Assembly (NCBI RefSeq): GCF_000189635.1
Contig: NW_002476368.1
Location: 372,001-436,000, forward strand
DNA from: Tetrahymena thermophila SB210
Taxonomy: Eukaryota > Ciliophora > Oligohymenophorea > Hymenostomatida > Tetrahymenidae
Reading direction: 5' to 3'
Length of the DNA stretch: 64,000 nucleotides
In this document: positions 2,224 to 64,000 of the stretch, one piece after another
How positions within the stretch are numbered: the first letter of the stretch is position 1
Layout: the number at the start of each line of letters is the position of its first letter
Notes under the pieces: model-generated
Seen by the model: only the letters and a program-made list of their open reading frames with translations
Database searches by the model: none
What the model was told of the DNA's origin: nothing
Translations under genes and position numbers: made by a program

Positions 2224-2844
2224 AAGATAAATAAAATGAATAAGTTTTGCATACAATTATATATTTGTGAAATTAATTATATAAAATATCATTAAAAAAT
2301 TCAAACATTTTAATAAAAATTTCCATTTTTAACAAATTATAATTATTTTATATTCAAATAAAAAAACTTACCTTTCAACAATCATACCTACCCAAAAAAT
2401 AAAAAATAATATATTTGTTTTAAAGTAAAAAATATTTTTATTAATTATTTCTAAGATTTTATTTAATATGAAAGGAAACTTGATCTCTATTTTTTTTATA
2501 AAATATAAAAATTAGGGGATTTATAATAAATAATATCTTTATTCTCAAATTACATGATAAGCAAAAAATTGATTGTCTATGAGAAGATGATTGATAAATT
2601 ATAACATTTCACTTTTCTACATATTAACAATTACTGATTAATTTCTTTGATTTTGTTAAAGGAGAAACAAATTAATTTTTGATTTTTTAAAGGTGACACA
2701 AAATATAAATAACAAATGTAAACTAATTAAATTTATTTACTCAAATATAAGATCCAATAAAGAATTATCAACAAAAAGATTAATTAAAAAATATAAGAAT
2801 AACATAAAAAAGCTAAAAAATAACAAAGTAAATATAAATAAAAA
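2224..2844. other. intergenic spacer, no gene seen
   Basis: AT-rich DNA with short A and T runs. There is no ORF with recognisable content on either strand. It presumably holds the 3' end of the phosphatase gene and the promoter of the VIT/VWA gene. Confidence 0.5.
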
Positions 2845-5550
2845 ATGAGAATCTGTAAATGCATGACAGGTCTATACAAGCAGTTAATAATAATAACTTA
2901 TAATTTATAGAATAACCAATAATAAGTTCCAGCTACTTTAGTAAAGCAGCAATACAACTGCTTTGTTATTAATAACATTCTCAAAATGACTGTAAATTAG
3001 ACATTTAAAAGTGTTTAACCTTATGAATACTCTGAATCAGTGTATATGTTTCCTCTTTCTGAAGACATTTGCTTAGAATCTTTCTCAGCCCAATACTAAG
3101 ATAAAACTATAAAGGGAGTTGTAAAATCAAAATTCAATGCATAAAAAGAGTATCAATAAAACAAGAGTGAAGGAAATTTGGTTTCTTATGCTGAATTAAC
3201 TACTTTAGACTAAGATGAATATTTAAAGATAAGCTTAGGAAATTTACCACCTAATGAAGAAGTTAAAATAACTTTAACTTTTTCTTAATAGCTCTAAACC
3301 TATTTAAATAAATTTTATCTTGTAAACATTCCTATTTCTTAAGTTGATCATGTTGAAAATGAAGTAGAAGTAAAACTTGGAAATAATCTTCTCACGCTTA
3401 ATATTTAATGTACAGGTAAAATAACTTCAATGGAAGCTATGGATAAAAAGAATCCAATTGAAAAGAAAATCATAGATGAATTTAACACCTAATTTTAGCT
3501 TTAAAAATTAGAAAAATAATAAGATCATTACCATTTCAAAGTATTATTTCAATTTGAAGGAATGTTTGAGCCTTAGGTAATATATGGACACAGTAGTATT
3601 TATGAAGAAGATAAAGTAAAAGAATTTCTCATCCCATAAAGAGAATCTATTATGGTTTCCTTCTTACCAGATATGAATTAAAAACAAACTGAAGAACTAG
3701 ATGATGCAATTAAAGCTTCTTTATAAAATGGAGAAGATTTCGTTACTGAACAATTTGAAGATAAAGTTAATGAAGAATTAATTGATCACTTAAAATCCTC
3801 AAGAAGTGAATACATATTTTTAATTGATAGAAGTGGATCTATGAGAGGTAAACCTCTCACTAAGGCTTTGGAGGCTTTGCAACTTTTCCTGTAAAGTTTA
3901 CCCCCAGATAGTTACTTTAACATTGTTAGTTTTGGTTCCAATTTCAAAAAATTATATGAAAGATCATAGAAATATAATAGCTAAACACTTAAATTTGCTT
4001 GTAATAAAATTAAGGACTATAGTGCTGATATGAACGGTACAGATATTTTATCTCCATTAAATAATATCTTTTACTACGGCTAAAATATAAGAGGTTATAA
4101 TAGACAAATATTTGTGCTTACAGACGGTGCAGTTTAAAATCGCTAATCTGTAGTTAGAGAAATCAAAAGGAATAATAAGAAAAACAGAGTCCATTTTATA
4201 GGATTTGGTTCTTCAGCTGATAAAATTCTTATTCAAGAGAGCGCAATTGCTGGAAAGGGAATACACGAAATGGTTTAATTTGAATAAGATCTTTCATCAA
4301 TTGTCATTAAAATCTTATGTAAAACCATCTCAGCAACTCTTGATAAATTTAAAGTTACCTTTGATTAGCAAATATTTGAATCAGTTTACCCTAATCCTCA
4401 AAATATTCCTTTTATATTAAAAGAAGAAGTTTTTAATTTGCATTTCTTCCTTCAACCTCTTGTAAAGATTAACGAAATCCCCGAAGAAAAGAAAGTAATT
4501 ACTATTTAATATTATGATTCTTCTAAGAGTTAAGAGGTAGTAAAATAAATCAAATTGTAAAGTAGTGATTCATTTACTTGCAACTAAGAACTTAAAGAAT
4601 CAGTATTTAAATTAGGAAAGCTTTAATAAATAACATTCTAATCTGTGAATAATGAAATAAGCCCTCAATCAGCAGAACAGTAAGCTATAGACTACTAATT
4701 AATTACTAAAGATACAGCCTTGATATGTCTTATCTAAAAAATAGATGATTAATAAAGAGCACAATTTGAATCTCTTCCTAAAGCATATTACAATCCAGTG
4801 TATGCTATGTAATAATATATTTTGAATCCTCCATTTAAATATAGTTCTAATATGGTTTTTTCTTCTCCTCCTAATTTTGCACCTAGGTCTGTTCGTGGAA
4901 TTCAACAGAACGATAATATATATATGGAATGTAAGGGTATCCCATAAACAAGTAGCCTATCTTAAACTCAAGCTGTTAATAGACCTTAGAGTAGCCTTTC
5001 TTATATGAAAAAAGCTGCTTCTTCAGTCTAACCCATATTTAATGAATGTAAAGAAAAAGCTCCTTTAGTATAACAGAAGAGTAAAGCTTATTTTGATGCA
5101 TCAATGAGTATTTAAAAAATTGATGAAAATAAAATTACATTGAATGCTAAAAATGAAAAACCATCAATAGTTGTTGAAAGAAAAAAAGAATCTTAAAAAT
5201 TAGAAAATGTAAAAATAGATGATCTTAAATAGCAAGATTCAAAATACATGAAGCTAGAGTAGCTCCTAAGTTTAGCTAGCTCAGAGGGAATACTAAATTA
5301 CGACGAAAAAATAGTTAAATAGTTTATTTCTTCTAAATTATAAGCATTTACAAGTCTTGATAATGAGTTAAAAAATAAAACAATTCTTATGACGATTCTT
5401 TTTATTTGTCTATTGGAAAAGCTTTATACTTAACAAAAGTAGAAGTGGATTCTGATTAGCAGAAAATCAATATCAAGTGTGAAGGAATAAATCTCATAAG
5501 AACAATTTAATAACTTAAAATAAGTTATTCTAAATATAATATAAGAGTGA
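2845..5550 (+). CDS. VIT + von Willebrand factor A domain protein
   Basis: An uninterrupted 901-residue frame, TGA-terminated, with many TAA/TAG Gln codons. The N-terminal part (about residues 25-200) resembles a VIT domain: the V-N-Q-T-F-K-S strand, a Y-x-F-P-L segment and an acidic G-N-L-P-P-N-E-E-V-K-I-T-L turn. A VWA domain follows at about 320-510 with a complete metal-ion-dependent adhesion site: D-R-S-G-S (D328, S330, S332), T399 in N-G-T-D and D427 in L-T-D-G. The C-terminal third is polar, Gln/Lys/Ser-rich and probably disordered. There is no signal peptide or membrane segment, so a cytosolic protein is likely. VIT-VWA proteins (inter-alpha-trypsin inhibitor heavy chain and PARP4-like families) mediate protein binding; the partner here is unknown. 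The start is the ATG just before the VIT fold. An in-frame ATG at 2716 is possible but would add only low-complexity residues. Confidence 0.9.
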
Positions 5551-6444: not shown

Positions 6445-9400
6445 TCAGTAGAAATATTGATTTGCTCTTATGTCATAAAGAGTAATATGTTCTGAGCTAG
6501 CGATTATATGAGTCAAGCTATCGAAATCAATTTGTTCTCCACTTTTATTTAGTTTAAGATAAAATTTAACAAATTTAAAAGAAAGCTAAATAAATAAAAA
6601 AGAAATTTTTTACTCAAGATCTCCCTCTGAATGTTAGTTTCTCCTTTAGATATTTTAGTTAATATTAAAAATTGTTAAAAAGGTATTAAAATAGAAAAGT
6701 AATTTAAAATTATAAAAGAGTTAAAAAGCTGATAATACCCGAGTTTTAGGTATAAGGAAGATAGATTAGTACAAAGAACTAAATTTTCATAAAGCTTTTA
6801 TGCCCCTTTTAAACCGAAAGAATTTTCACTTTATGAATTATTAAAAGTTAATTAATAAAAAATTAAGTTAATAATAAATAACTAACCAACTATTTATCAA
6901 ATATAAAAGTATAGTTTAACTTCAAAAATTGAAGAAAAAAAACAATTTTTATTACATGAGACTAAGATGTAACCATGAGAGTTTTGAACATTTTATTAAA
7001 GATTAGCTAAACTTTTCTATGTCTTCATCATTGATTTGATTATAACTTGATATTTTAATTTAATTTTAAATGTTTTTTAATTAAATTTTAGATGAATGGT
7101 AAATTTAAATAAAAAAAAAGCAATATTAACTCTAAATTTATATCAATTTTAGATAAGTTTTCGCAATTTCCAAAAGCGTTTCCTAACATGAATATCCCTT
7201 CTTTTTCCATTTAAGCTCTGTAAGTATATATTTTATTTGATTAATTTAATATCTTAATTTATAAATTATGAAAGAAACAAAAAAAATTGAAATAAATAAA
7301 AGTATTTTTAGCAAGAAAAATAACATTTTACAATTCAAGTACTATATCAGAGAGATTAGAGCAAATAGAAAGTGAATGTTAGAAGCTTTAAATACTTTGC
7401 AATCCAATATTATCTAAACTTTTTGTAAATAAAAATATATTTTTAAATAAACATATTTTAGTTATTTTATATTAATTTCTGCTTTTAGAAAAATAAATTT
7501 AAAGTTTTAGTATAATTAAGAAGAATTTTATTCAAAATAAAAATAAAAATCATTGTAAATAAGATATTATTAAATATCAATTACAACTATAAACGAATTA
7601 AAAAATTATTTTTACTTGAAATATAGATTTAATTTGGAGAGTAAATGACATTTACTTAGGAAATTTGACAAGCTTACTAACCCTTCATTTCCAATTTTTA
7701 CTTGTCTTTAATAAAAAATACTTTTAAACATATCATAATAAGTGGAAAGTAATAAACTGATAAATTATTATAGAATTTTAAGATGAAGTTGAAATAAAAA
7801 CTCTGTGATTTATTTATTATAATATGCAAATTTATTTTAAATTCTAATAAATATAAAAAATACTGCATCATTAATGTCAAAGATTGAAGAGTTTAGGAAC
7901 AACTTAATGCAGAAAATAAATTCTAAGCTCCTTAAGCTTATAAGAGATAGTTATCCCTTTTTTATTAGTTTAAATATAATGTTAATATAGTAAATTTATA
8001 CAATAAATATTAAATTTTAATTATTTTTTTTGAGAAAAGCAAAGTATATTTTAAATAAAATATATTTACTTCAAATTGAGAGTTAGAGTTTCTAAATTGT
8101 TGCAATTTGCCAAAATAGAACCAAGTTTATATGCTTCTTAGTCATTAATTGAGCTTTTCATTTTAATTTTTTTAAATTAAATTTTAAAAATGTACTTTAG
8201 TCATTCAAAATTCGTAGTTAAAAAAAAAAATTAACTAAAATCCAAAATAAAACTAATTTGACATGTATTTTTACTATATACCAAGATCCAAACTTCTAAT
8301 TATTGAGCTATTTATAAAATTAATTGCAAAACCCAATTCTCCTTATTGATTTTAGTAAAACTACTTACTGCTATTATACCTTAATATTTATATGCAAGTT
8401 AAAAATTATTTTAGAACTTGAAAAATTTAATATAGTTAATAATAAATATTTTAATGATAACATAAACTAATTAATACTCTAGAGAAAGTTTTAAGCTCAA
8501 TTAATTCTCATAGCTTGTTAAATCTAAGCACAATTATTAATCCAAATTCGATGCAAATATTTTATTATGCCTTTTATAATTAGTTAAATATAAAATTTGT
8601 AAAAATATTTTGAAGGATTTTTCTATGTGTTCTTAATTCTTAGAGTAAACTAATATGAGCTTTATATCAAATTAATTATTTGAGTAATAATTAATGCGTT
8701 TCTGAATTTATATTTAATAATTCTTGGCTTTGTTGGTTTTTTTGATTGTGTATAATATTATAATTATTCACAAAAAACTCATTTTAATTACTCACTAATA
8801 AAATAGCTCTATTTTTAGTCAATTTACTTTAAATCTAGTGATAAAGTAGAAAGATTAGTACAATGAGCTAAAGCAGAAAGTATACTTTAAGCACCTATTT
8901 TTCCAATATGATTATAGCTTTTTTAAACAATTCAATTTAATTTCTTACTTAATCAATTTATTTTACCCTAAGTTAAGCTCTAAGTTTTAAAGTTATTTAA
9001 ATTTCATTAAACAATTAGATAAACATTATGCACCAAGTTCTCCTATATTGTTTAAACTTTAATTTATTTAATTAAATTAATCAAAAATTATTGTTAATTC
9101 TAAAGAAAATTTTTTAATTATAAAATTAATCCTCAAAATATCACCTGTTTACTTAATTCACTAGCAGTGAATATAAACTTAATTTAAATTTAAAAACTTT
9201 TGAATTTTACTGATTTTTTAATTTAGCATTTTTATTTTTTTTTTTTTTGTAAATCTGTGATTCTTCAGACTTATAATTATCCATACACTCAATTATAAAT
9301 TATAGTTTTAAGATAATAAAATTATAACAAAAGTAGTCCCAATTAATTTTTTATTTGAAATAAATTGCTATTAATAATAAAATTTAAAAAATTTTCTTTT

Positions 9401-9812
9401 TAATGTGATTTTTCTTTTTAAATAACTTTTGAGGATTGATTGATTCATTTTAAATTAAAATTTTCAAAACTATTTCTAATAGAAAACTAATTATTACTAG
9501 AAATTAAGCAATAAAGTAGAGATTTTAGTTTAACTTTCTAATGATGCTGTTAAATCTGCTATTCCTTTATTATCTATACAATTGTTTCTTTTAAAATATA
9601 ATATAAATAAGTTATAATTAACAAAAATAAAAAGTATATTTCGAATTTAATAAAGTATTAGTTTTAATTAAAAGTAATAAGTAAACTTGTAAATTATTAA
9701 TTGATATCTATATTTTTGGCATTATATTAATTAAAAACTACTCTTACCCAAAGTAAAGCTCCACTTTTTAAAGATCTGAACATTTGGTTAAAGCTGTGCA
9801 TACACTTTCCAT
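6445..9812 (-). CDS. multi-exon leucine-rich repeat protein (about one LRR per exon)
   Basis: Proposed exons in transcript order: 9812-9748, 9587-9498, 9056-8967, 8917-8828, 8367-8275, 8153-8070, 7956-7864, 7705-7616, 7418-7332, 7217-7131, 7045-6956, 6828-6739 and 6643-6445. The spliced frame is 1248 bases (415 residues) ending in TGA. Each internal exon is 84-93 bases, a multiple of three, and encodes one ribonuclease-inhibitor-type repeat: N-x-I-G-x-x-G, then L-x-x-x-L-x-x-C-x-x-L-x-x-L-x-L. All 12 introns (49-460 bases) are GT-AG, enter at phase 2, and restore the repeat register at the joins, for example L-G-Y-N-H-I-G and L-D-Y-N-Q-I. No signal peptide or membrane segment is seen, so an intracellular binding protein is likely; the partner is unknown. 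The start ATG at 9812 is also present in the decayed duplicate near 18.6 kb. More 5' exons, or one hidden in the 460-base intron, are possible. Confidence 0.75.
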
Positions 9813-10849
9813 TTTGGTGTTGCTTTATTAAAATTAAATATTTAATTTTTGTCTCAATGAAATAATAATAACAATAAAAATAATAAATCTTGATCAAAAT
9901 ATTTTTATTTAAAAAAATAGATTTTATAAAAATATCATAAAAAAGTTTATTAAACTGTATCTAAAAGTAAAAGTTAAAGAAAGAAATTTATTTTTGATTT
10001 ATTCATGAAATTAAATATTTTTATGACTCATCGATACCAATAGCAGATTGATTAATCAAAGAGGATATTATTGACTTTTAATGAAATAAAAAATTGGTTT
10101 AGATAATAAATAATAAGAAAATATTAATATACTTCTAAATATTAATTTTATTACTAATTCTATTCTATCATATTTTTTTTTTATTTTACAAGTGTTTTCC
10201 TACTAATTAAATTTGGAATTAAGATAAATTATTGTTTTTTATTAAAAAATATCACTAATTAAATAAATAAAATAAACATAGAAAATAGACAGTATTCTTT
10301 TGATTCTTTTAAATATATCTATTAGAAATTAATTTTTCCTTTGTAATTCTTAAAATTTAATTTTACCTTTATTCCTTATTATTGCTAATTTTTATAGATT
10401 CAAAGCAAAAATAATATGGAAATATCAATTTAACATTTTTATTTATTTTTGAATTACTGTAATACCTCAATAAGAAATTTTTACTACTTGCGAGGTAAGA
10501 GGTAAGGCGTCTTAAAATTGAAATTTAAAATTTCTACATTTTAGTTGCTCTGCTAATAGATTCAAAAGAGGTTTATTAAAGTAATTAAATTAAAAAGAAC
10601 CATAAAAGGATATAGATAGGAATGCGGAATTGATTAAATATTTTATTATTTTAATAAATTTTCTTTTTTTAATTGCATTAAAATCATCGCCATATATGAT
10701 CAGAATAATATCCCTTATCCTTTTATAATTCAATAACTTTATGAATTTATTACATAATTATTTAAAAAATAGCTAATTTTCTGAAAATTCTTTTGCTTTT
10801 TTATTATTTTGCTCTTAAAATATTTATTAAATTTCTAGTTCTATATCTT
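9813..10849. other. region upstream of the LRR gene
   Basis: The part up to about 10440 is duplicated at about 18660-19245. Weak antisense LRR-like readings (around 10025-10075, reading N-Q-S-A-I-G) hint at extra 5' exons or relics, but no clean splice was found. The stretch 10450-10520 is locally richer in G+C and carries GTAATACCTCAA at 10459-10470, the inverse of TTGAGGTATTAC at 5974-5985. Confidence 0.35.
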
Positions 10850-13800
10850 AAATATTAAATAGCATTTTTTAAGAAAATAAAAAGTATGGAGTTTATTATT
10901 AAGGATAATATAAAATTTTATGGAAAATTATCTTATATATTCATAAAAAATAATTAATTTAACTTAGTTTTTATTGCAAAAAAAAAAGATTAGCAATTTT
11001 TTAAAAACCCATCTTACTTGATGATATATTTTTTTGAGTAATTCCAACTATGTTTTTATAAATTTTTAAAATTGCTTAGTTTTGCTCTTTAAGATAAAAT
11101 AAATTTAACAATTTTCTATTTTTAAATAAGTTAAATAGATATATTACTCACTGTGAGGTATCTATTTGTAAAGAATAAATTTTACCAAATATATAATAAT
11201 TTGCTAAAGTTTATTAGCGAAGTGAAAAAAATATTTAAATCAATATACAAATTAGAGATCAAGCGAATTTTAGGAAAAATTGAATTTTATGACTAAAATA
11301 GAAGTTTTAAAATGCCCAGTCTTTGGTTGAAATATAAATATAATATTCAATCTTCAACTATATAATTTAAAAGAACCTTTCTATTTTTTCTTCAGTATTT
11401 TAATTCATTTAAATTAATACTTTTAATAACCCTTTTTTCAAAACAAAATTTAGAGTACTTAAATTTTCTGTTTTTACTTCTCATTTTCTTTTCTTGATAA
11501 TAAATAAACATGTTATAACTTAAAGTGATGTGATTATCTTAAAGAAATAAAATCAATGTGAAATTGGTTAATAGTTTATTTTGGGTACTTTTAAATCAGA
11601 AGAAAAAAGAGAAATATTGATATTATCTAGCATAGTTTGCTTTTAAATATATATCTGCTCAAATAATTAATTTAAGGAGCAAAAGAATAAAATAAAATAT
11701 TCAATAATTTATAATCAATTAAAAAATTACCATTTTATTTTAGAAATTATGACTTTTTGTTTTGCTTTTAGGATCATTAATAAAAAAATTTTGATTTTTA
11801 GAGTAAAAATTTGTTGATGTTTCATTTTTTATTAAGATATTTGACAATTATTGCTTCTAGATTCAAGATCTTTAGCTGTTATTAGCATAAAATAATTGCT
11901 TTTATCTGATAGTTATAAAATTAAATGCTAATCATTGATAAATTAATAAAATTATCTTAATGGCTAACAAAATAAATAATTTCATTTTAGATTCTAGATA
12001 TTTAGCTATTATTAGTGAAAATAATCGCTTTTAGGTGATAATCATTGACAAATTAATAAAGTTATCTTAATCATTAGTAAATTAATTAAATTTTATCTAA
12101 TACGCATTCAAATTAATAAAAGCTTTAGAATTCAAGCTACTATCATTTGTAACAAATTATCTATCAAATATTATAAAAACTAACTATACATTTCATATTT
12201 AATATAAGTTATGATATTGCTATAATCTGGAAATTATGTATTTTAAGTTTTATTGAATTTCTAAAAACATAAATATTTATAGTTAATCTAAAAACATTTA
12301 AATATATTATCTGTTATTTGTAAATACTGAAATTTATTCATAATAAATGATAAAGCTATGTATGAAACTTTTAATTTCAAATATCTATCCTTGTATAAAT
12401 TTTATTTGATTTGACTGTAACAATCACATTAATAATATAAAAAAATTGGTCCTAATTTACTTAAAATTAATTCGGGAGGTTTAAAAATCAAATTAAAAGC
12501 ACACATAAATTCACTTCAATAATGAGATAAAGTTCAGTTTATGGTAATTAAAAATTTACTGAATTTTTGCAATTATCGCTAGTTTGATAGGATTAATTTG
12601 ATCAGTGTAGAAATTTAAGATCAATGTAAAAAATTCAATTAACTTTGAAATCAACCATTTTAGTAACACCTTCAAACTACTAAATGCAAAAATACTTTTC
12701 ACATCCTTATTCCCTTAAATTTACTTCTGGTAAATATATTTTGCTAATATAAACATTTATTTACCCAAAATTTTTAATACATTACTACTATTAAAATTAA
12801 GTAATATAATGTAAGTAGCAAGCATGAAATTTAATATATGTTTTTGATGATTAATATTATTAAGTAAAATAATAAGTGATTTACAATCAATCATTAATTA
12901 AATTATGATTCTTGTAATTACTGTAAATGATTTGTTGGCTTATTGATATTTTGTAGGCTATTTCCAGATAATATTTTTAAATATAATTATTTTATTAGAA
13001 TTTTTAAAGATTTATGATTATTATTTTTATCAAAAACAGCCTCAACTTCTCTTTTAAGTTGTTAATGGAAATAATTGTTAAATTATTAATTTTGGTTTGA
13101 ATAAAATCTTAATTTTATGAAAAATGTGGAAGAAATTAATTTTTAATTTTAAATAAAATTTTAATGTGGCTAAGATTAATTTAAAAGCCATCAATTAATA
13201 ATATAGAAAAACTGGAAATTTTTAACTCAAGTAACATTAACATAAATGGAAAATTCAGATAAATATTTTATATAATTTAAGGGAATATAGACAAAAAATG
13301 TGATCTAAATAAAACATTTTAAATGCATATGAAATAATAATAGTTGATTGAATATAAAAAGAATATGCTTACACAATTTGATAATTAAATATAGATTTAA
13401 TATAATATAATAATTAAATGTTCCTATTTAATAAGGATAATTACCTCACTTTTAAATGCGATATAGTTTACAATTATTAAAAATTAGGTTTTTGAAGGTG
13501 ACTATTTGTATGATTATTTCTATTTCTTAAAATTTATGGTTATAAACATATTATATTTCAAATTTAATACTTGAAAATGTATATTGAGACATATGACTCG
13601 CCTAGTCAGCTAGCTTACAAAGAAAAATTATATTAATTATTTTAAGTCTTTGAAAATCAAAATATATGCAAAAGATAGAATAGAATTTACACTACCATAT
13701 CTTCATTTTCATTAAATATATTAAATTAAACTAATTTATTTTTAAATTTCAAGCAATTATGTATACAATAAACATTAATTTTATTTATTTTTATTCTAAA

Positions 13801-14590
13801 GTTTTACTGAAATTTTATTCTAAAAATAGTTAATAATATTCCAAATAATTAATAATTGAAGAATAAATTCATTTTAAGTATTATAATTATTATTATTTTG
13901 TCTTTCAACATAGATATTTAATGCGCTAAAGTCATCTAATTCTTATTATAAATTACCTTTTTTAATGTGCATATTATATTTTCTTAGTATATTAAATCAA
14001 TCGATCTAAATTGATTAGAAAAAATTTCAGTGAAAAATCGACTCCTTAATTCTTCTTAAAACAGTAATTATCTAATTTAGAAATGAATAATTAAACTTGA
14101 ATTAAAAAAAATAAGGTTTTTCATTTAATTAACCAAATATTTAATTTGAAATACTATTACTATTCTCTCCACTGATACCTTATTAATTTACTGAAGCTAA
14201 TATATTCCATATAATTTAATTACATTGTAATTTCATGAAACAATATTTAAATAGCTTAGATTATTTTGAGATATCTATTATTTTACAATCAATTAAAGAA
14301 ATAAAATTATTTACTAAACATTTTCTTTATTTCTAAATACCCATTTAAGGATATTTATTTAGTAAAATTGAGTTATGTTCTATTCAAAAAATATATTCTC
14401 ACATTCAATTTCAAAGATAAAATCTTACTTACACTTTAATTCATTAATTAAAGCCAAGATTGAACTTTCTTCACTGATAGCATTAATATTACAATTTTTA
14501 TTGACGTAATTGATAATTCAGCTTGCAAATTAAAGTCTGTAAATAAGTTTCTAATTTACCATATTAAAAATTTTCTATTAAAAACCACTT
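10850..14590 (-). repeat. spacer block alpha, copy A, with antisense LRR-like segments
   Basis: This is the longest form of a block repeated upstream of six surface genes (others: 21115-23220, 26100-29640, 32560-35480, 38560-41915, 47110-50025). On the minus strand it contains short readings with LRR-like periodicity: near 14510-14395 (S-E-E-S-S-I-L-A-L-I-N-E-L-K-C), near 13970-13920 (L-D-D-F-S-A-L-N-I-Y-V) and near 13070-12980 (H-K-S-L-K-I-L). Homologous readings recur in other copies with substitutions, but no full splice chain was assembled. It may be a live intron-rich gene or a relic. The block also holds two short repeat units (about 11850-12120) with hairpins. Confidence 0.45.
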
Positions 14591-14591
14591 A

Positions 14592-14713
14592 TTTAATTAG
14601 CTATTTTAATTAATTGATAGATCTATTTCTTTAATTTATTTTTGTATAAAACCAAAACAGATTTTCATTTTTTATAAATAATAAATAACTAAATTATTAA
14701 TTAACAAAAACTA
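14592..14713 (+). promoter_or_regulatory. conserved 5' flank of the surface-protein genes (copy A)
   Basis: About 120 bases just before the start codon are nearly identical before genes A to F. The block reads TTAATTAGCTATTTTAATT, then an AATTGATAGATCTATTTCTT-like stretch, then GTATAAAACCAAAACAG, and ends in A-rich leader at the ATG. Matching blocks lie at about 23218-23360, 29643-29780, 35482-35616, 41916-42043 and 50025-50163. Genes G and I have diverged flanks. The TATAAAA-like element and strong conservation suggest a core promoter and leader; recent duplication alone could also explain part of it. Confidence 0.5.
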
Positions 14714-17173
14714 ATGCAACTCGAACTCAGTTTATTTTTGCTTCTTATTTTCTTTGCTAAAAGCATTTACGCTCTTAGCAAATGCTTATGTACTGTAGAT
14801 TCTTCTTCTTTTCCAGGTTCTAGTGCAGTTCCACCTGCATCTCTTTCTTTATCATCTGAAAACGAAGTTGTTGGAAATACAGATGTCGGAAAACTTATTG
14901 CTGTAGGCTCTATTCAAGTACTATAGTAAGTTTTTTAAGTTACAAAGTGGTCTAGTATAGCACTTAATCACAATTGCCCTTTTGGATATACTCCTCTTAC
15001 TAAAGATGACTTAACTACCATAATTGGAAGATCTGATATAAAGTCTTTAGTTGGACCAACATACTTAAATCTTGATTTTACAAAAAATGTTTACTATTCT
15101 TCTACTAAGGTAAACGCTACAGCTACTAGAGGTAGTGATAATAATTCATATAACTACTTTTCTTTAGCTGTTGATAAAAATAATAACTTTACTATTGAAG
15201 GTTCAAGCACGTATTGGGAATCTAAAATAAAATCTACTATTTGCAAAAGGGATATGTAATTGTTTTCTGTTTCTCTAAATGGCTATGAAGGTTTCGATTT
15301 AGAAAAAGGAAAATCCTACTAAATTTAAATTAATAACAAGAATGTTTAGCAATATTACATTTATGATAGCAATGGAAATAAATTTACTACTTAGACCTTC
15401 AATTATATTCATAATGGAGATTCTTTATGGGGATGTGCTACGCTTAATTTCAAGCTCTAGCTATTTGGTGGAATTATTGCTGGCGATTGCCTTGCAATTT
15501 GGACTTAAAATCAGATGGCCTTTAATGCCGATTCTAGCAGTTTCAATATGAATTCAATCAAAACTGCTGTCTTGTCAGGAGTTAAAGCAAATGTAAATAC
15601 AGGATTCTTTTTCAGTCCTGGTTCAGCACCTATAGCTCCAATTATAGGTGATTCAAGTTCATTTTATGTCTATTACTCAGTACAGACATCAAACTAGCTG
15701 ATGGTTTAGAAGGTTTCAAGTACAGGTACTCCGATTGGAGCTGCTATTGATACTAAATAAACTGGTCAACCTTTCGATATTACCTCTACTGGATTTGGCT
15801 TTGTAGTAATGGCAGCAGATTCGACATAAAGAGCTTTCATATAAGCTATAAATAAAGACGGAACTTAGAGATGGTTAAGAAATTTAATTAACAATGGTGA
15901 TGCACCAGAAAGCCCAAAAGAATAGATTGAATTTTTCTAAAGTGATAAATGTGATTTACCCTTTGGAATGAATTGCATGTTCAGGCCTCATAATGGTAGA
16001 CTTAACTATGCGAGAGGAAAAATTTAAGCAGTTTGGGCACATTATAATCACTTTGGATATAGAAAAGGTGGAGGTAGAAATGATCACACTGGAGATACAA
16101 TGATAAGCTTAGACGCTGATACAGGCTATAATTAGACTATCTTTTGGAGTTTTGCAGCTTCTCACTCTTTGTATTAGGATATGCACTATGATGGAAAGAA
16201 TTTATATGTTGCTTCTCTTGCAGATGCTTACCCAATGAATATTTTATTTTAGGTTTGCAATATCGATACTTATCAATGTAAAGATAGTGGTACTGTAGTT
16301 TAAGGAGATATACCTGGTAATGGTGGCGGTTCCTCATCAGGTAGAATTGGTGGTTTCTTTAGCATTATAGGAAACAGAACACAAAAGCTATTTGTTTATT
16401 AGAGAAAGGCAAGCAATGGAGGATACAGCGGATCTGTGTCAAATAATACAGTAAATGAACTTGCTGTACTTAAGTTTGATTCCTAGCTGAACTATATTTC
16501 AACTACAACTCTTTTGAGTGGTGAAGTAGCTTCTAGAGTAAATAGTATAAAATCAGTACCCTATGGTAAAAATATTTTACTTGCTTACACAGTTATTCCT
16601 ACTTCTGAAGTTCAAAATTTCAACCGCTAAGGCAGCAATAACAAAGTAGATTAAGCTTATATTGCTTTATTAAGTGGTGTTGATGGATCATTTTTAGTAT
16701 AACCAACCTAACTATCTACCTTCCAAATAAATTCTTCTGATGACTGGAGGATACTAGAAAATGGAAGCATCGCTTATACATATATAGACAACAGTAATAA
16801 TTTAAATATCTACTACACTCCTTCACTTACAATTCCTAGTTATCCAAATCCTATTCTACCATATGATAGCATATATGGATTTGGTAACTTTACAAATACC
16901 TAATAGTAACCCATTATAAATAACTACAACTATGTTTGTGTTAAGTAAAATAATACAAATTGGAGTATTGTAGACTATAGCAAAACCATATCAAGCGTAG
17001 CAAGTAGTAATAATCCATCAAATAGCAATAATCCATCAAACAGCAATAATCCATCAAACAGCAATAATCCATGTGTTCCTGGCAGTAACTAAGCTAATGA
17101 TTGTATCTCTTCATTTAAAAATATCATTAATAACTTATGTATCTTTTTAATAATAATAACATTCCTTTTCTGA
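14714..17173 (+). CDS. array gene A: secreted, probably GPI-anchored surface protein (819 aa)
   Basis: Single exon, TAA/TAG read as Gln, stop TGA. Residues 1-20 form a signal peptide ending A-L-S-K before C24-L-C26. Residues about 60-330 carry conserved N-C-P, T-I-C-K, W-G-C-A and G-D-C-L-A-I-W cysteines. Residues about 335-760 have repeated beta-strand units resembling a propeller (for example I-S-L-D-A-D-T-G and the Y-D-G-K-N-L-Y-V-A-S segment). Then come a stalk with three N-N-P-S-N-S hexads, P-C-V-P-G, and a hydrophobic tail (N-N-L-C-I-F-L followed by Ile/Thr/Phe) with no charged end, as in a GPI-attachment signal. The function is unknown. Copy-specific features are K-W-S-S-I-A-L before the first N-C-P and a R-K-G-G-G-R loop at the H-Y-N-H-F-G site. 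The copy 3' flank runs directly into block gamma. Confidence 0.9.
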
Positions 17174-17252
17174 TAAAACTCAATTCAGAAAAATTTAATG
17201 TTTATAATTAATTTGTTTTATTTGAAGCAAACAAATAATAAATCGTATAAAA
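17174..17252. other. 3' flank of gene A
   Basis: Short AT-rich flank, similar to the flanks after B to F (each contains a TTTGAAGCAAA- or TTTGATAGAAAC-like motif about 60 bases past the stop). It may hold 3' processing signals. Confidence 0.35.
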
Positions 17253-19245
17253 AGTAAACTAATTAATACTCTAAATAAACTATTAAGCTCAAATAATTTT
17301 CATAGCTTGATAAATCCAAGCAATATTGTTAATCCAAATTTGATTTAAAGATCAAATTTGCCCTTTTATATTAGTTAAATATAAAATTTGTAAAAATATT
17401 TTGAAGGATTTTCCTATTTGTTTTTTAAATAATTCTTAGAGTAACTAATATGAGTTTTATAAAGAGTTTATTGTTTGAGTAATAATTAATGAATTTCTGA
17501 AATTTTATTTAATCAATTCTTTGGTTAGCTGATTTGTTTTACTTGTGTAAATTAATATAATTATTCACTAAAGACTCATTTAAATTACTCTCCAATAAAA
17601 TAGCTCTATTTTTAGTTTCAATTTACTTTAAATCAAGTGATAAAGTAGAAAGATTAGTACAATGAGCTAAACAGAAAGTATACTTTAAGCTACTATTTTT
17701 CCAATCTTATTATTGCTTTTTATTTAAGAATAAATAGCTTAATCTATTTCTTACTTAATATCATTATTCATAATAAAAATATAAAAAAATTAAAATTTTA
17801 TTTTTCCTATTGCTAAGCTATATGTCTTAAAGTTATTTAAACTTCATTAAAAATGTAGCTAAACTTTTTACACCAAGATCTTCTGTATCATTTATACTTT
17901 AATTATAAATTTAATCTTCAAAATATTGCCTGCTTACTCTATTAGCAGTGAAGGTAGAATTTTTTATAATAAGGAAAATCTAACTTAAATTTAAAAACTT
18001 TTGAATTTTACTGATTTTTTTTGTAAATCTGTGATGACTCAAATTTATTATTATCCATCAACTCAATTATAATTCTAAGGCAACAAAATTATTAACATGA
18101 ATAGTCCCAATTTATTTTTTATTTTTAATAAATTGGTATTTATAGTCAAATTTTAACAATTTTCCTTTTAATGTGATTTTTATTTTTAAATAATTTTTGA
18201 GGATTAATTTATTCATATAAAAATAAAAATTTTTTTGCAATAATTGTCAAAGACTATTTCAAATAGAAAACTAATTTATACTAGAAATTAAGCAATAAAA
18301 AAGAGATGCTAGTCACGCTTTCTAATGATGCTGATAAATATGCTATTCCTTTATTGCTTATACAATAGTTTCCTTTAAAGTAAAATAAATTATAACTAAA
18401 GATAAAAAAAACTTTTTAAAAAAATAAAAAGTATATTTCCAAATTCTTAAAGTGTAAGATTTAAATGAAAGTAATAATCCAACTTGTAAAGTTATTAATT
18501 TATATCTAAATTTTTGAATTTAATAAATAGTTAAAAAATTTTAATATATTAATTAAAAATTGCTCTTATCCAAATTAAAGCTCCACTTTTTAAAGATCAG
18601 AACATTTAGTTAAAGCTAAGCATACATTTTTCATTTTGATGTCGCTTTAAAAAAATTTACTATTAAATTTTCGTGTAAATATAATAAAAAAAATTACAAT
18701 AATAAATATTAATCAAAATATTTGTATTTAAAAAAAATTTTTTTGAAAATATCATAAAAAAGTTTATTATTTATTATGTATCAAAAGTCAAAGAAAGAAA
18801 TAAAATAAATGAATTTATTTTTGATTTTTTCATGAAATTAAAATTTTTATTACTCAGTGATATAAATAGCCGTTTGATTACTCAAAGAGGATATTATTAA
18901 CTTTTAATTAAATGAAAAATTAGTTTAGATAGTAAATAATTAGAAAACAGTAATATACTTCTATATCTTAATTGTATTACTAATTATATTATGTCATACT
19001 TTTTTATTTATTTTACAAGTATATTTCTTCAAATTAAATTTGGAATTCAGATAAATTATTATTTTTTATAAAAAATAGCATAAACTAAACAAATATAATA
19101 AATATATAAAATATAAGTATATCTATTTAATTTTTAGTTTTTCCTTTGTAATTATTACAATTTAATTTCAACTTTTTTCCTTTTTATTGCTAATTCTTTG
19201 AGATTCAAAGCAAGAATAATATGGAAATATCAATTTAATACTTTT
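17253..19245 (-). pseudogene. decayed duplicate of the 5' half of the LRR gene (block gamma)
   Basis: About 2 kb is colinear with 8461-10440. Counterparts of LRR exons 1-4 are recognisable: exon 1 near 18637-18573 (start ATG kept, then L-T-K-C-S-D-L-Q-K-V-E-L), exon 2 near 18370-18280 (N-K-G-I-A-Y-L-S-A-S-L-E), exon 3 near 17900-17813 (M-K-F-K-Q-L-Q-D-I-Q-L), and exon 4 near 17720-17630. Lesions: the exon 1 donor GT is AT, the exon 3 donor region GGTAAA is GGAAAA, one base is inserted at the exon 2 acceptor, and one base is lost in exon 4, shifting the frame. Exons 5-13 are absent. This contrast supports selection on the intact copy at 6.4-9.8 kb. Confidence 0.7.
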
Positions 19246-19960
19246 ATACAAATTAGAATATTTTAAATTAAATTAAAAAAATTTTAATTTAAAAATAATA
19301 AAAAAAACAAAATAACTAAAAAAATAATCTTAAAAAAAAGGATTAATTTAAAAACAACAAAACAAAATAAATATATAGACTAATAATTACAGTTAGTGTT
19401 GTTCAAAATAGACTAGGTCGAAAGACATACGAAAAGTGGAGGAGCTAAATGTTTCGGATTCACTGTAAAGTTTTTAAATGAAAATTATTGGTTTTAGTTT
19501 TTAAATTTTTTTTAAAGTTTGTCAAATTAAGATTAGCGAAAAATAAGTTTAAAATTATAAGACTACAAGATCATAAAATAATTAATTTGAGGTTAAATAC
19601 TTTAGATGGAATAATTCATGAAAACAATAAGTAAATATAAATTCTTAAATTTTCTTTTATTAAATGATAAACTAATTGATTTAAATTAAAAAAGTTTAAT
19701 AAAGAAAAAAATGAATAATTAGTCTAGATGCTAAGAAAATTTTGAAGAAAATAACGATGATTGGCTAGTAAAAATCAGAAATAATTAACAAATGAAAATA
19801 AAAAAAGTAACCCTTTAATATGAATATGAAATTATGAATTATTTAGAAAACTAATTTTATAGAAATTTATATATATTATCTTTTGAGCAACATTTTTTTC
19901 CAGGGGTATATTCGTATCAATACAACTAAATTTTTAATCTATAACAGAATAAATAGTATT
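19246..19960. other. unique part of the A-B spacer
   Basis: AT-rich DNA without a recognised counterpart in the window. A slightly more G-rich patch lies at 19400-19460. No gene is seen. Confidence 0.4.
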
Positions 19961-61588: not shown

Positions 61589-64000
61589 ATGCAAATTAAT
61601 TCAAGTTTATTTTTATTAGTGCTTTACTTAATCAGCTATGTTTAAGCTCTTAGTAAATGCTAATGTACTGTAGATTCATCTCCTATTCCAGGTTTGAGTA
61701 GTACTCCACCTCCTACTCTTTCTATTTCTCGTGATAATGAAGAAATTGATAATGTAGATTAAGGAAAGTTAATAGCTATTGGATCTATTTAAGTTCTTCA
61801 AAAACTTTTCTCTGTTTAATAGCAATCAAGTGCAGGTCTCAACTAAAATTGCCCCTCAGGATACATCCCTGTCACTTAAGATGACTTAACTTCTATCATC
61901 GCAAGGTCAGATTTTTAGTTTTTAGTTGGCTCTACATATTTAAACCTTGACTTCTCTAAAAATACCTATTATTCTTCTACTAAGGTCAACCCTACAGTTA
62001 CTAGTGGTAGTGACGCAAATGCTTATGTCTACTATACTTTATCTCTAGATGAGAAGAGTAAACCTGTTATTGGATAGGAAAATACATATTTTGATAAGAA
62101 AACAAAAGCTACAATTTGCAAAAGAAATTTGAAGCAATTCTCAATATCATTAGCTGGATATGAAGGATTTGATTTAGAAAAGGGAAAATCCTACTAAATG
62201 TAAATTACTAACAAAAATGTATTGTAATATTACATTTATGATAACAATGGAAATAAATTTACAACTTAAACCTTCTCTTATACTCATAATGGAGACTCTT
62301 AATGGGGATGCGCTACACTCAACTTCAAGCTCTAGCTTTTTGGAGGAATCTCAGTAGGTGATTGTCTTGCTATCTGGACATAGAATCAGATCGCCTTTAA
62401 TGCTGATTCTAGCAGTTTTAATATGAATTCAATATAAACTAGTGTCTTATAAGGAGTGAAAGCTAATGTGAATAATGGCTTTTTTTTCAGTTCTGGTTCT
62501 GCACCAATAGCTCCTATTATCGGAGATTCAAGCTCCTTTTATGTCTATTACTCAATTCAGACTACAAATCAACTGATGGTTTAAAAGGTTTCAAGTACAG
62601 GAACACCTATTGGACCTGCAATCGACACTAAATAGGTTGGTGATACTTTTGATATTGTTTCAACAGGTTTTGGTTTTGTAGTGATGGCAGCAGATTCTAC
62701 TTAGAGAGCGTTTATCTAAGCAATTAATAAGGATGGATCATAGAGATGGCTTAGAATACTAATTAACAATGGTGATAAGCCAAATAGCCCTAAAGATTAA
62801 ATAAAATTCTTTTCAGATGATAAGTGTAGCTTACCTTTTGGAATGACTTGTATGTATAGACCTCATAATGGTAGGCTTAATTATGCAAGAGGAAAAATAT
62901 AAGCTATTTGGGCTCATTATAACCATTTCGGATTTAAAAATGGAGCTAGAGATGATCATACTGCAGATTCTATGATTAGTTTGGATGCAGATACAGGATA
63001 TGATTAGAATATATTTTGGGCTTGGGGAGCTTCTCATTCTTTGTATTAAAACATGCACTATGATGGAAAAAATCTGTATGTAGCTTCACTTGGAGATGCA
63101 TTCCCAATGAATATTAAATTTTAGGTTTGCAACATTGATACCTTTTAATGTAAGGCTAGTAGTACTGTTGTTTAAGGGGATATTCCTGGTGATGGTAGTG
63201 GGAAAGCTTCAGGTAGAATAGGTGGTTTTTTTAGCATTTATGGAAACAGAAATCAAAAATTATTTGTCTATCAGAGAAAGGCATGCAATGGAGGATATGC
63301 CGGTAAAACTTCAACTAATTCAATCAATGAGCTAGCTGTTATTAAGTTTGATTCTTAGTTAAATTACATTTCCTCTACAACTCTTTTAAGTGGTGATATA
63401 GCTTCTAGAGTGAATAGCATAAAATCATTAGCTTATGGAAAAAACATACTGCTTGCTTATACAGTAATTCCTAATTCTGAATTGTAAAATTTCAATCGCT
63501 AAAATAGCAATCCTAAAGTAGATTAAGCTTTTATAGCTTTGCTGAATGGGGTAGATGGATCATTTTTAGTTTAACCATAATAGTTATCCAGTTACTAAAT
63601 AAATTCATCAGATGATTGGAGAATACTGGAGAATGGAAGTATTGCTTACACATATATTGATATCAATAAAAATTTAAATGTTTACTATACTCCTTCTTTA
63701 ATAATACCCAGTTATCCCCATCCTATATTGACAACAGACACTACATATGGATTTGGCAGTTTTACTAATTCTTAGGTCAGTATTCCAATAAATAACTATA
63801 ATAATGTTTGCCTTAAACAAGGTGATTCTAATTGGAGTATTGTAGACTTTGGAGGAAATTCATCTAATAATAATTCAAATAGTAAAACAAATAAAGATGA
63901 AATTACTAATAACGATAGTAGCAATAATAATTCAAATAGTAAAACAAATAAAGATGAAATTACTAATAAAGATAGTAGTGAATAAAATTCTTTTAAATAA
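61589..64000 (+). CDS. array gene I: divergent surface protein paralogue, cut by the window edge
   Basis: Single open frame of 804 codons with no TGA before position 64000, so the C-terminus is outside the window. The signal peptide (Q-I-N-S-S-L-F-L-L-V-L) and K-C-Q-C-T are clear. It is the most diverged paralogue in the N-terminal part (P-G-L-S-S-T-P-P-P-T, and E-K-S-K-P-V-I-G-Q-E for the usual K-N-N-N-F segment) but keeps the body motifs I-S-L-D-A-D-T-G, N-H-F-G and Y-D-G-K-N-L-Y-V-A-S. The stalk is of another kind: two copies of a Ser/Asn then K-T-N-K-D-E-I-T-N unit from about 63866 onward, charged where A-F stalks are neutral. The pseudogene to its left shares this stalk. Confidence 0.9.
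63866..63981 (+). repeat. direct repeat in the stalk of gene I
   Basis: Two in-frame copies of a 57-base unit beginning aataataattcaaatag, coding Asn/Ser runs followed by K-T-N-K-D-E-I-T-N. Unrelated to the hexad repeats of genes A, D and F. Confidence 0.75.

What the first reader, a model, noticed from the sequence alone, without database searches (positions are those of the whole stretch)
6445..9812. Intact LRR gene hidden in what looks like empty AT-rich DNA, with one repeat per exon
Thirteen short minus-strand segments each read as one ribonuclease-inhibitor-like LRR. Joining them at GT-AG sites gives a continuous 415-residue protein. Every join falls in phase 2, and every internal exon is a multiple of three. 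The repeat register is kept even where one intron is displaced by two codons (exon 5/6). Such exon-per-repeat regularity lets repeats be gained or lost without breaking the frame.
Basis: partly seen in the sequence, partly recalled or inferred. Interest (0 to 1): 0.75.

Follow-up and report, generated by a model that had tools for sequence, protein, structure and literature searches.

The report
Ordinary Tetrahymena one-repeat-per-exon LRR gene
A ciliate gene for a leucine-rich-repeat protein is really there, cut into one repeat per exon with every intron in the same phase, but this is the published hallmark of a large gene family in this same organism, so it is an ordinary gene rather than a new kind of thing.

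Summary
On the minus strand, 14 exons (9812..6445) join at 13 GT-AG introns, all phase 2, into 412 residues ending at TGA under the ciliate code. A profile built only from LRR exons on two other contigs recovers 10 of 12 internal exons, nothing else in the window on either strand, and nothing in 300 shuffles. The genome looks like Tetrahymena thermophila: a telomerase exon matches solved telomerase at 101 of 102 residues (species of those entries recalled). Xiong et al. 2019 (PMC6564038) describe this architecture there: 1,500 of 1,874 LRR genes have at least one 90-bp exon, with extreme phase-2 bias. So the kind is already known. Extra here: only 6 of 12 internal exons are exactly 90 bp (6 of 9 by the comparison script), against 164 of 167 in other arrays examined, marking an old or fast-drifting member that kept phase. 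A truncated, decayed copy of exons 1-5 lies at 17.2-19.2 kb, consistent with a tandem duplication whose left breakpoint is in intron 5. Expression could not be tested.

The parts
9748..9812 (-). exon 1, start ATG at 9812, 65 nt, half LRR (MESVCTALTKCSDLQKVELYF)
   Evidence: start conserved in copy B
9498..9587 (-). exon 2, 90 nt, one LRR
9057..9497 (-). intron 2, 441 nt, the longest; no lost exon could be shown in it
8967..9056 (-). exon 3, 90 nt, one LRR
8828..8917 (-). exon 4, 90 nt, highest-scoring LRR
8478..8570 (-). exon 5, 93 nt, divergent LRR
   Evidence: (lowest passing score); no peak in the splice-blind scan
8368..8477 (-). intron 5, 110 nt; holds the left breakpoint (about 8463) of the tandem duplication inferred for copy B
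8275..8367 (-). exon 6, 93 nt as modelled, divergent LRR; acceptor uncertain (8379 or 8370 also open)
   Evidence: below the threshold
8070..8153 (-). exon 7, 84 nt, one LRR
7864..7956 (-). exon 8, 93 nt, one LRR
7616..7705 (-). exon 9, 90 nt, one LRR
7332..7418 (-). exon 10, 87 nt, one LRR
   Evidence: below the threshold
7131..7217 (-). exon 11, 87 nt, one LRR
6956..7045 (-). exon 12, 90 nt, one LRR
6739..6828 (-). exon 13, 90 nt, one LRR
6445..6541 (-). exon 14, 97 nt, shortened last LRR and TGA stop
   Evidence: only; no profile support
17255..19247 (-). copy B: truncated, decayed duplicate of exons 1-5 and the upstream flank; exon-1 and exon-3 donors and the exact exon-2 acceptor lost, one-base deletion in the exon-4 equivalent

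Best explanation
The region is an intact member of the Tetrahymena 90-bp-exon, phase-2-intron LRR gene family (closest to group II of Xiong et al. 2019: at least one 90-bp exon, no nucleotide-level internal repeats). It encodes a 412-residue protein made almost entirely of about 13 ribonuclease-inhibitor-like LRRs, with no strongly hydrophobic stretch, so most likely an intracellular protein-binding solenoid. Each repeat sits in one frame-neutral exon, so recombination inside introns can add, drop or swap whole repeats. Shown here: exon anatomy, phases, non-chance, relatives in the genome, and a breakpoint of similarity inside an intron of this gene. Inferred: expression, splicing in vivo, location, ligand binding, and the recombination mechanism.
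For: Exons, phases and open frame; outside profile finds 10 of 12 internal exons and nothing else in the window, 0 of 300 shuffles; splice-blind scan, 11 of 13 listed peaks in exons, all 11 with a phase-2 donor within one codon; published class with >98% phase-2 introns before 90-bp exons and 1,500 of 1,874 T. thermophila LRR genes with at least one such exon; telomerase exon 101 of 102 identical; other arrays in this genome, 4 of 6 introns of one being 257 bp, the published T. thermophila group III peak, and 164 of 167 exons of exactly 90 bp in the 16 locus-strands with two or more exons, from 25 loci; leucine at 31 of 36 cells of the six leucine positions in the six 90-bp exons; similarity to solved LRR proteins, best E = 4.2e-7; exon indels 1 of 20 events; maximum 19-mer Kyte-Doolittle 1.02.
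Against: Only 6 of 12 internal exons are exactly 90 bp. Pfam LRR_6 is below its cut-off (12.6 against 23.4 bits). dN/dS with copy B is not below neutrality, and exons (16.4% differences) are no better kept than introns (15.0%), although copy B is a broken partner and blurs that test. Exons 6 and 10 miss the profile threshold, exon 14 has no profile support, and the exon-6 acceptor is ambiguous. No transcript was available.
Confidence: 0.9

Rival explanations
1. A recently silenced gene: the frame and splice sites are intact only because too little time has passed, and the locus is decaying in step with copy B.
For: Exons and introns differ from copy B equally (16.4% and 15.0%); dN/dS 0.80 is compatible with neutrality; repeats are divergent and exon lengths have drifted.
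Against: Copy B has 3 lesions counted (two donors, one deletion) over 427 aligned exon bases, the gene 0 over 1,236; at B's rate 8.7 would be expected, P about 2e-4; at half that rate P = 0.013, and at the lower 95% bound of B's rate P = 0.17. A fourth lesion in B, the exact exon-2 acceptor, was not in that count. Exon indels are depleted (1 of 20, P = 0.005), though AT-rich introns may be more indel-prone.
Confidence: 0.12
2. Real gene, but some splice choices are wrong (for example at exons 5, 6, 10 or 14), or some repeats are alternatively spliced.
For: Exon 6 has three open in-frame phase-2 acceptors; exons 6 and 10 fall below the threshold; exons 5, 6 and 14 give no splice-blind peak; intron 2 is 441 nt.
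Against: Every join as modelled keeps the frame and, by eye, the repeat register; no lost exon could be shown in intron 2.
Confidence: 0.25
3. A chance assembly of leucine-rich AT-rich reading frames.
For: AT-rich DNA under the ciliate code has only one stop codon, so long open frames are common (151 stop-to-stop frames of at least 150 codons in the window, six frames).
Against: 0 of 300 shuffles give a single exon above threshold, the region gives 10 and the rest of the window none.
Confidence: 0.001

Closest known systems
[quoted passage not shown] 2019, PMC6564038)
   Same: Apparently the same species; one LRR of about 30 residues per exon, phase-2 introns on both sides, three consecutive 90-bp exons (exons 2-4), coding GC 27.4% against about 27% published background, no long nucleotide-level internal repeat.
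   Different: Half of the internal exons are 84, 87 or 93 bp; introns of 49-441 nt lie mostly between the group II peak (about 56) and the group III peak (about 257).
Brown algal ROCO genes with shuffling LRR exons (PMC11378527, passages seen)
   Same: One LRR per exon, phase 2, exon shuffling proposed.
   Different: 72-bp exons, LRR of 23 residues, fused to ROC-COR; unrelated lineage.
Gonadotropin receptor LRR exons (as cited in PMC11378527)
   Same: One LRR per exon with phase-2 introns.
   Different: Animal receptor ectodomain, different LRR class (recalled).
Ribonuclease-inhibitor-like LRR proteins (solved chains such as 9y6s_8b; 5irm_A, recalled as NOD2)
   Same: Sequence similarity over up to 178 residues at E 4.2e-7 to 0.0066 (7 distinct sequences).
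   Different: Here about 30 residues per repeat, with two more residues between the LxL strand and the N than in the classic motif (classic motif recalled).

Membership tests
[quoted passage not shown]
   Telomerase exon 101 of 102 residues identical to solved telomerase, the mismatch at the exon edge (species of those entries recalled); 4 of 6 introns of 257 bp in the array on L021; TAA/TAG read as Q throughout
[quoted passage not shown]
   13 of 13 introns phase 2 in the model; phase control 0/0/10
[quoted passage not shown]
   6 of 12 internal exons are 90 bp, exons 2-4 consecutive
[quoted passage not shown]
   At the six leucine columns of 12 exons from L021/L022, the gene's six 90-bp exons have L in 31 of 36 cells, I or F in the rest; the published logo itself was not seen
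[quoted passage not shown]
   Only short matches between units, longest direct repeat 37 nt at 81%; introns 49-441 nt, 1 of 13 is 257 nt. The published repeat consensus set was not available.
Pfam LRR_6 (PF13516) | Score above the curated cut-off | tested here: not met
   12.6 against 23.4 bits
Functional gene | Spliced transcript | not testable with these tools
   No RNA data

The most novel reading that the evidence does not exclude
This gene is a natural test case of what happens to a 90-bp exon array once recombination stops homogenising it: whole-codon indels make exon length drift (84-93) while intron phase stays fixed, which would mean that the exact 90-bp length reflects recent copying and that only phase and repeat register are under selection.
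Probability: 0.4. Interest if true: 0.35.

Novelty: already known. Interest (0 to 1): 0.2.

Why it matters
It confirms that a genuine multi-exon ciliate gene was read from bare sequence, but the architecture is published for what appears to be this species. The useful extras are a drifted family member and an example of a duplication breakpoint falling in an LRR intron, both of which bear on how the arrays arise and age.

Tried and rejected
A lost exon inside the 441-nt intron 2: by eye two half-repeat-like stretches seemed present, but the profile scores no better than shuffles (32 of 60 and 39 of 60 shuffles reach the best N-half and C-half scores in the gene; 14 and 6 of 60 in copy B). Rejected. 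The same table of 24 tests (11 of the 13 introns, two halves each, and two for copy B; introns under 90 nt skipped) has one low value (intron 12, C-half, 0 of 60), which I treat as chance.

A short extra exon in intron 13 was weighed by eye: it would make the last repeat about 36 residues long, against 26 without it; left out as the less economical choice, not tested.

Purifying selection from dN/dS of the two copies: not shown. One codon of 142 was dropped because of the deletion in copy B.

Upstream exons before 9812: none above threshold on either strand of the whole window, and the start is at the same place in copy B. That scan does not detect copy B's own exons either, so a decayed or divergent exon could be missed.

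The confidence of the splice-choice rival was raised from 0.2 to 0.25 for the second of these.

Full report
WHAT IS THERE. Read on the minus strand with TAA and TAG as glutamine, 14 exons between 9812 and 6445 join into 1,239 bases: 412 residues and a TGA stop. The 13 introns are GT-AG and all phase 2. The 12 internal exons are 84 to 93 bases, all multiples of three, 6 of 12 exactly 90. Exons carry 23-35% G+C, introns 10-19%. Exon 6 has three open in-frame phase-2 acceptors, so its length is uncertain.

IS IT MORE THAN CHANCE. I made a profile from 12 LRR exons on two other contigs (L021, L022) and looked for phase-2 exons between AG and GT. The region gives a chain of 10 exons; none of 300 dinucleotide shuffles of it and none of 66 other tiles gives even one, and over both whole strands of the window only those 10 pass. 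Exons 6 and 10 do not pass. Without asking for splice sites, 13 peaks were listed in the region: the 11 best lie in the gene's exons and the 2 lowest in introns; exons 5, 6 and 14 give none. Ten of the 11 have GT exactly two bases after the last codon; at the eleventh (exon 10) the donor lies one codon earlier, still in phase 2. By phase, 0, 0 and 10 candidate exons pass. Elsewhere in the window the best half-repeat peak by that scan is in copy B (42.8), and isolated peptides reach 27.6, above the weaker true exons (20.8), so a half-repeat score alone is not diagnostic.

WHICH ORGANISM. The genome is 101 Mb in 445 contigs. A telomerase exon on contig C60 matches solved telomerase chains at 101 of 102 aligned residues; the one mismatch is the first residue, where the reading runs over the exon edge (I recall these entries as T. 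thermophila). One LRR array, on contig C229, has introns of 257, 251, 249, 257, 257 and 257 bases; 257 is reported as the main T. thermophila group III peak.

WHAT IS KNOWN. Xiong et al. 2019 (PMC6564038; I read the abstract, sections 10, 11, 19, 25, 26 and 27, and found passages) describe this class: 1,500 of 1,874 T. thermophila LRR genes have at least one 90-bp exon, more than 98% of introns before such exons are phase 2, and exon shuffling by unequal crossing over, possibly with a retrotransposon, is proposed. A second literature search with terms for the class listed only this paper. One-repeat-per-exon, phase-2 LRR genes are also described in brown algae and, as cited there, in gonadotropin receptors (passages of PMC11378527). 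I could not check whether this particular gene is annotated.

THE FAMILY IN THIS GENOME. A search with the protein gave 112 matches, a lower bound, including the gene's own exons and one in copy B. In 25 loci (L018-L042: 24 around such matches and the telomerase locus L030), 16 locus-strands from 15 loci hold two or more array exons: 167 exons, 164 exactly 90 bp; in all, 0, 9 and 168 candidates pass in phases 0, 1 and 2. The loci were chosen by similarity and the profile, which here included the window gene's own 90-bp exons, penalises other lengths, so this favours 90. The same script finds 9 of the 12 internal exons of the window gene, 6 of them 90 bp and the others 84, 93 and 87. Against that yardstick the window gene is a drifted member: length uniformity is partly lost, phase is not.

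THE SECOND COPY. At 17255-19247, minus strand, lies a copy of the gene's exons 1-5 and about 630 bases upstream, 77% identical over 2.1 kb. Its exon-1 and exon-3 donors and its exact exon-2 acceptor are gone and its exon-4 equivalent has a one-base deletion. Similarity to the gene stops at about 8463, inside intron 5, and gives way at 17253/17255 to the 3' flank shared with the next unit of a tandem array; the looser alignment runs some 20-25 bases further. A tandem duplication of about 8463-17253 would leave just this junction. On that reading copy B was born without exons 6-14, and its lesions say nothing against the intact gene.

CONSTRAINT. Differences are 16.4% in exons and 15.0% in introns; dN/dS is 0.80 (0.46-1.50), and 24% of neutral simulations are as low. 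Indels: 1 of 20 events in exons, which make up 428 of 1,350 bases, P = 0.005; AT-rich introns may simply be more indel-prone. Lesions: 3 counted in copy B, 0 in the gene; P between 2e-4 and 0.17 depending on the rate assumed. Together these favour, but do not prove, a working gene.

HOW IT MOST LIKELY WORKS. About 13 RI-like LRRs with no strongly hydrophobic stretch (maximum 19-mer 1.02; 0.38 near the N terminus; no signal-peptide program was run) suggest a curved intracellular binding protein. Solved relatives found by sequence are mostly named LRR proteins (7 distinct sequences, best E = 4.2e-7). Pfam LRR_6 stays below its cut-off. Ligand and role are unknown; Xiong et al. suggest roles in sensing bacteria or neutralising digestion by-products.

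VERDICT. Observation right, interpretation right in the main, kind already published for what appears to be this organism.

Noticed in passing
window 14618-58366 (+), eighth match near 61594-63850: Tandem array of seven stop-to-stop reading frames of 833-920 codons, 74-91% identical to one another, plus an eighth nucleotide match. One of them, read through, has hydrophobic N- and C-terminal ends that suggest a GPI-anchored surface protein; no Pfam family over its cut-off in any of the seven; one of seven searched against solved structures, no match.
   Followed up: partly
window 17255-19247 (-): Decayed 5' fragment of the LRR gene, consistent with a tandem duplication that also copied one unit of the surface-protein-like array.
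   Followed up: yes
window 2683-5550 (+): Stop-to-stop frame of 955 codons with VIT and von Willebrand A domains.
   Followed up: no
L003, L004, L006-L010, L013: LRR relatives read in one frame without splicing elsewhere in the genome, 25-33% identical over 169 to 380 query residues: the same kind of repeat apparently without an intron per repeat.
   Followed up: no
window 6445-9812 (-): The 412-residue protein contains no proline.
   Followed up: no
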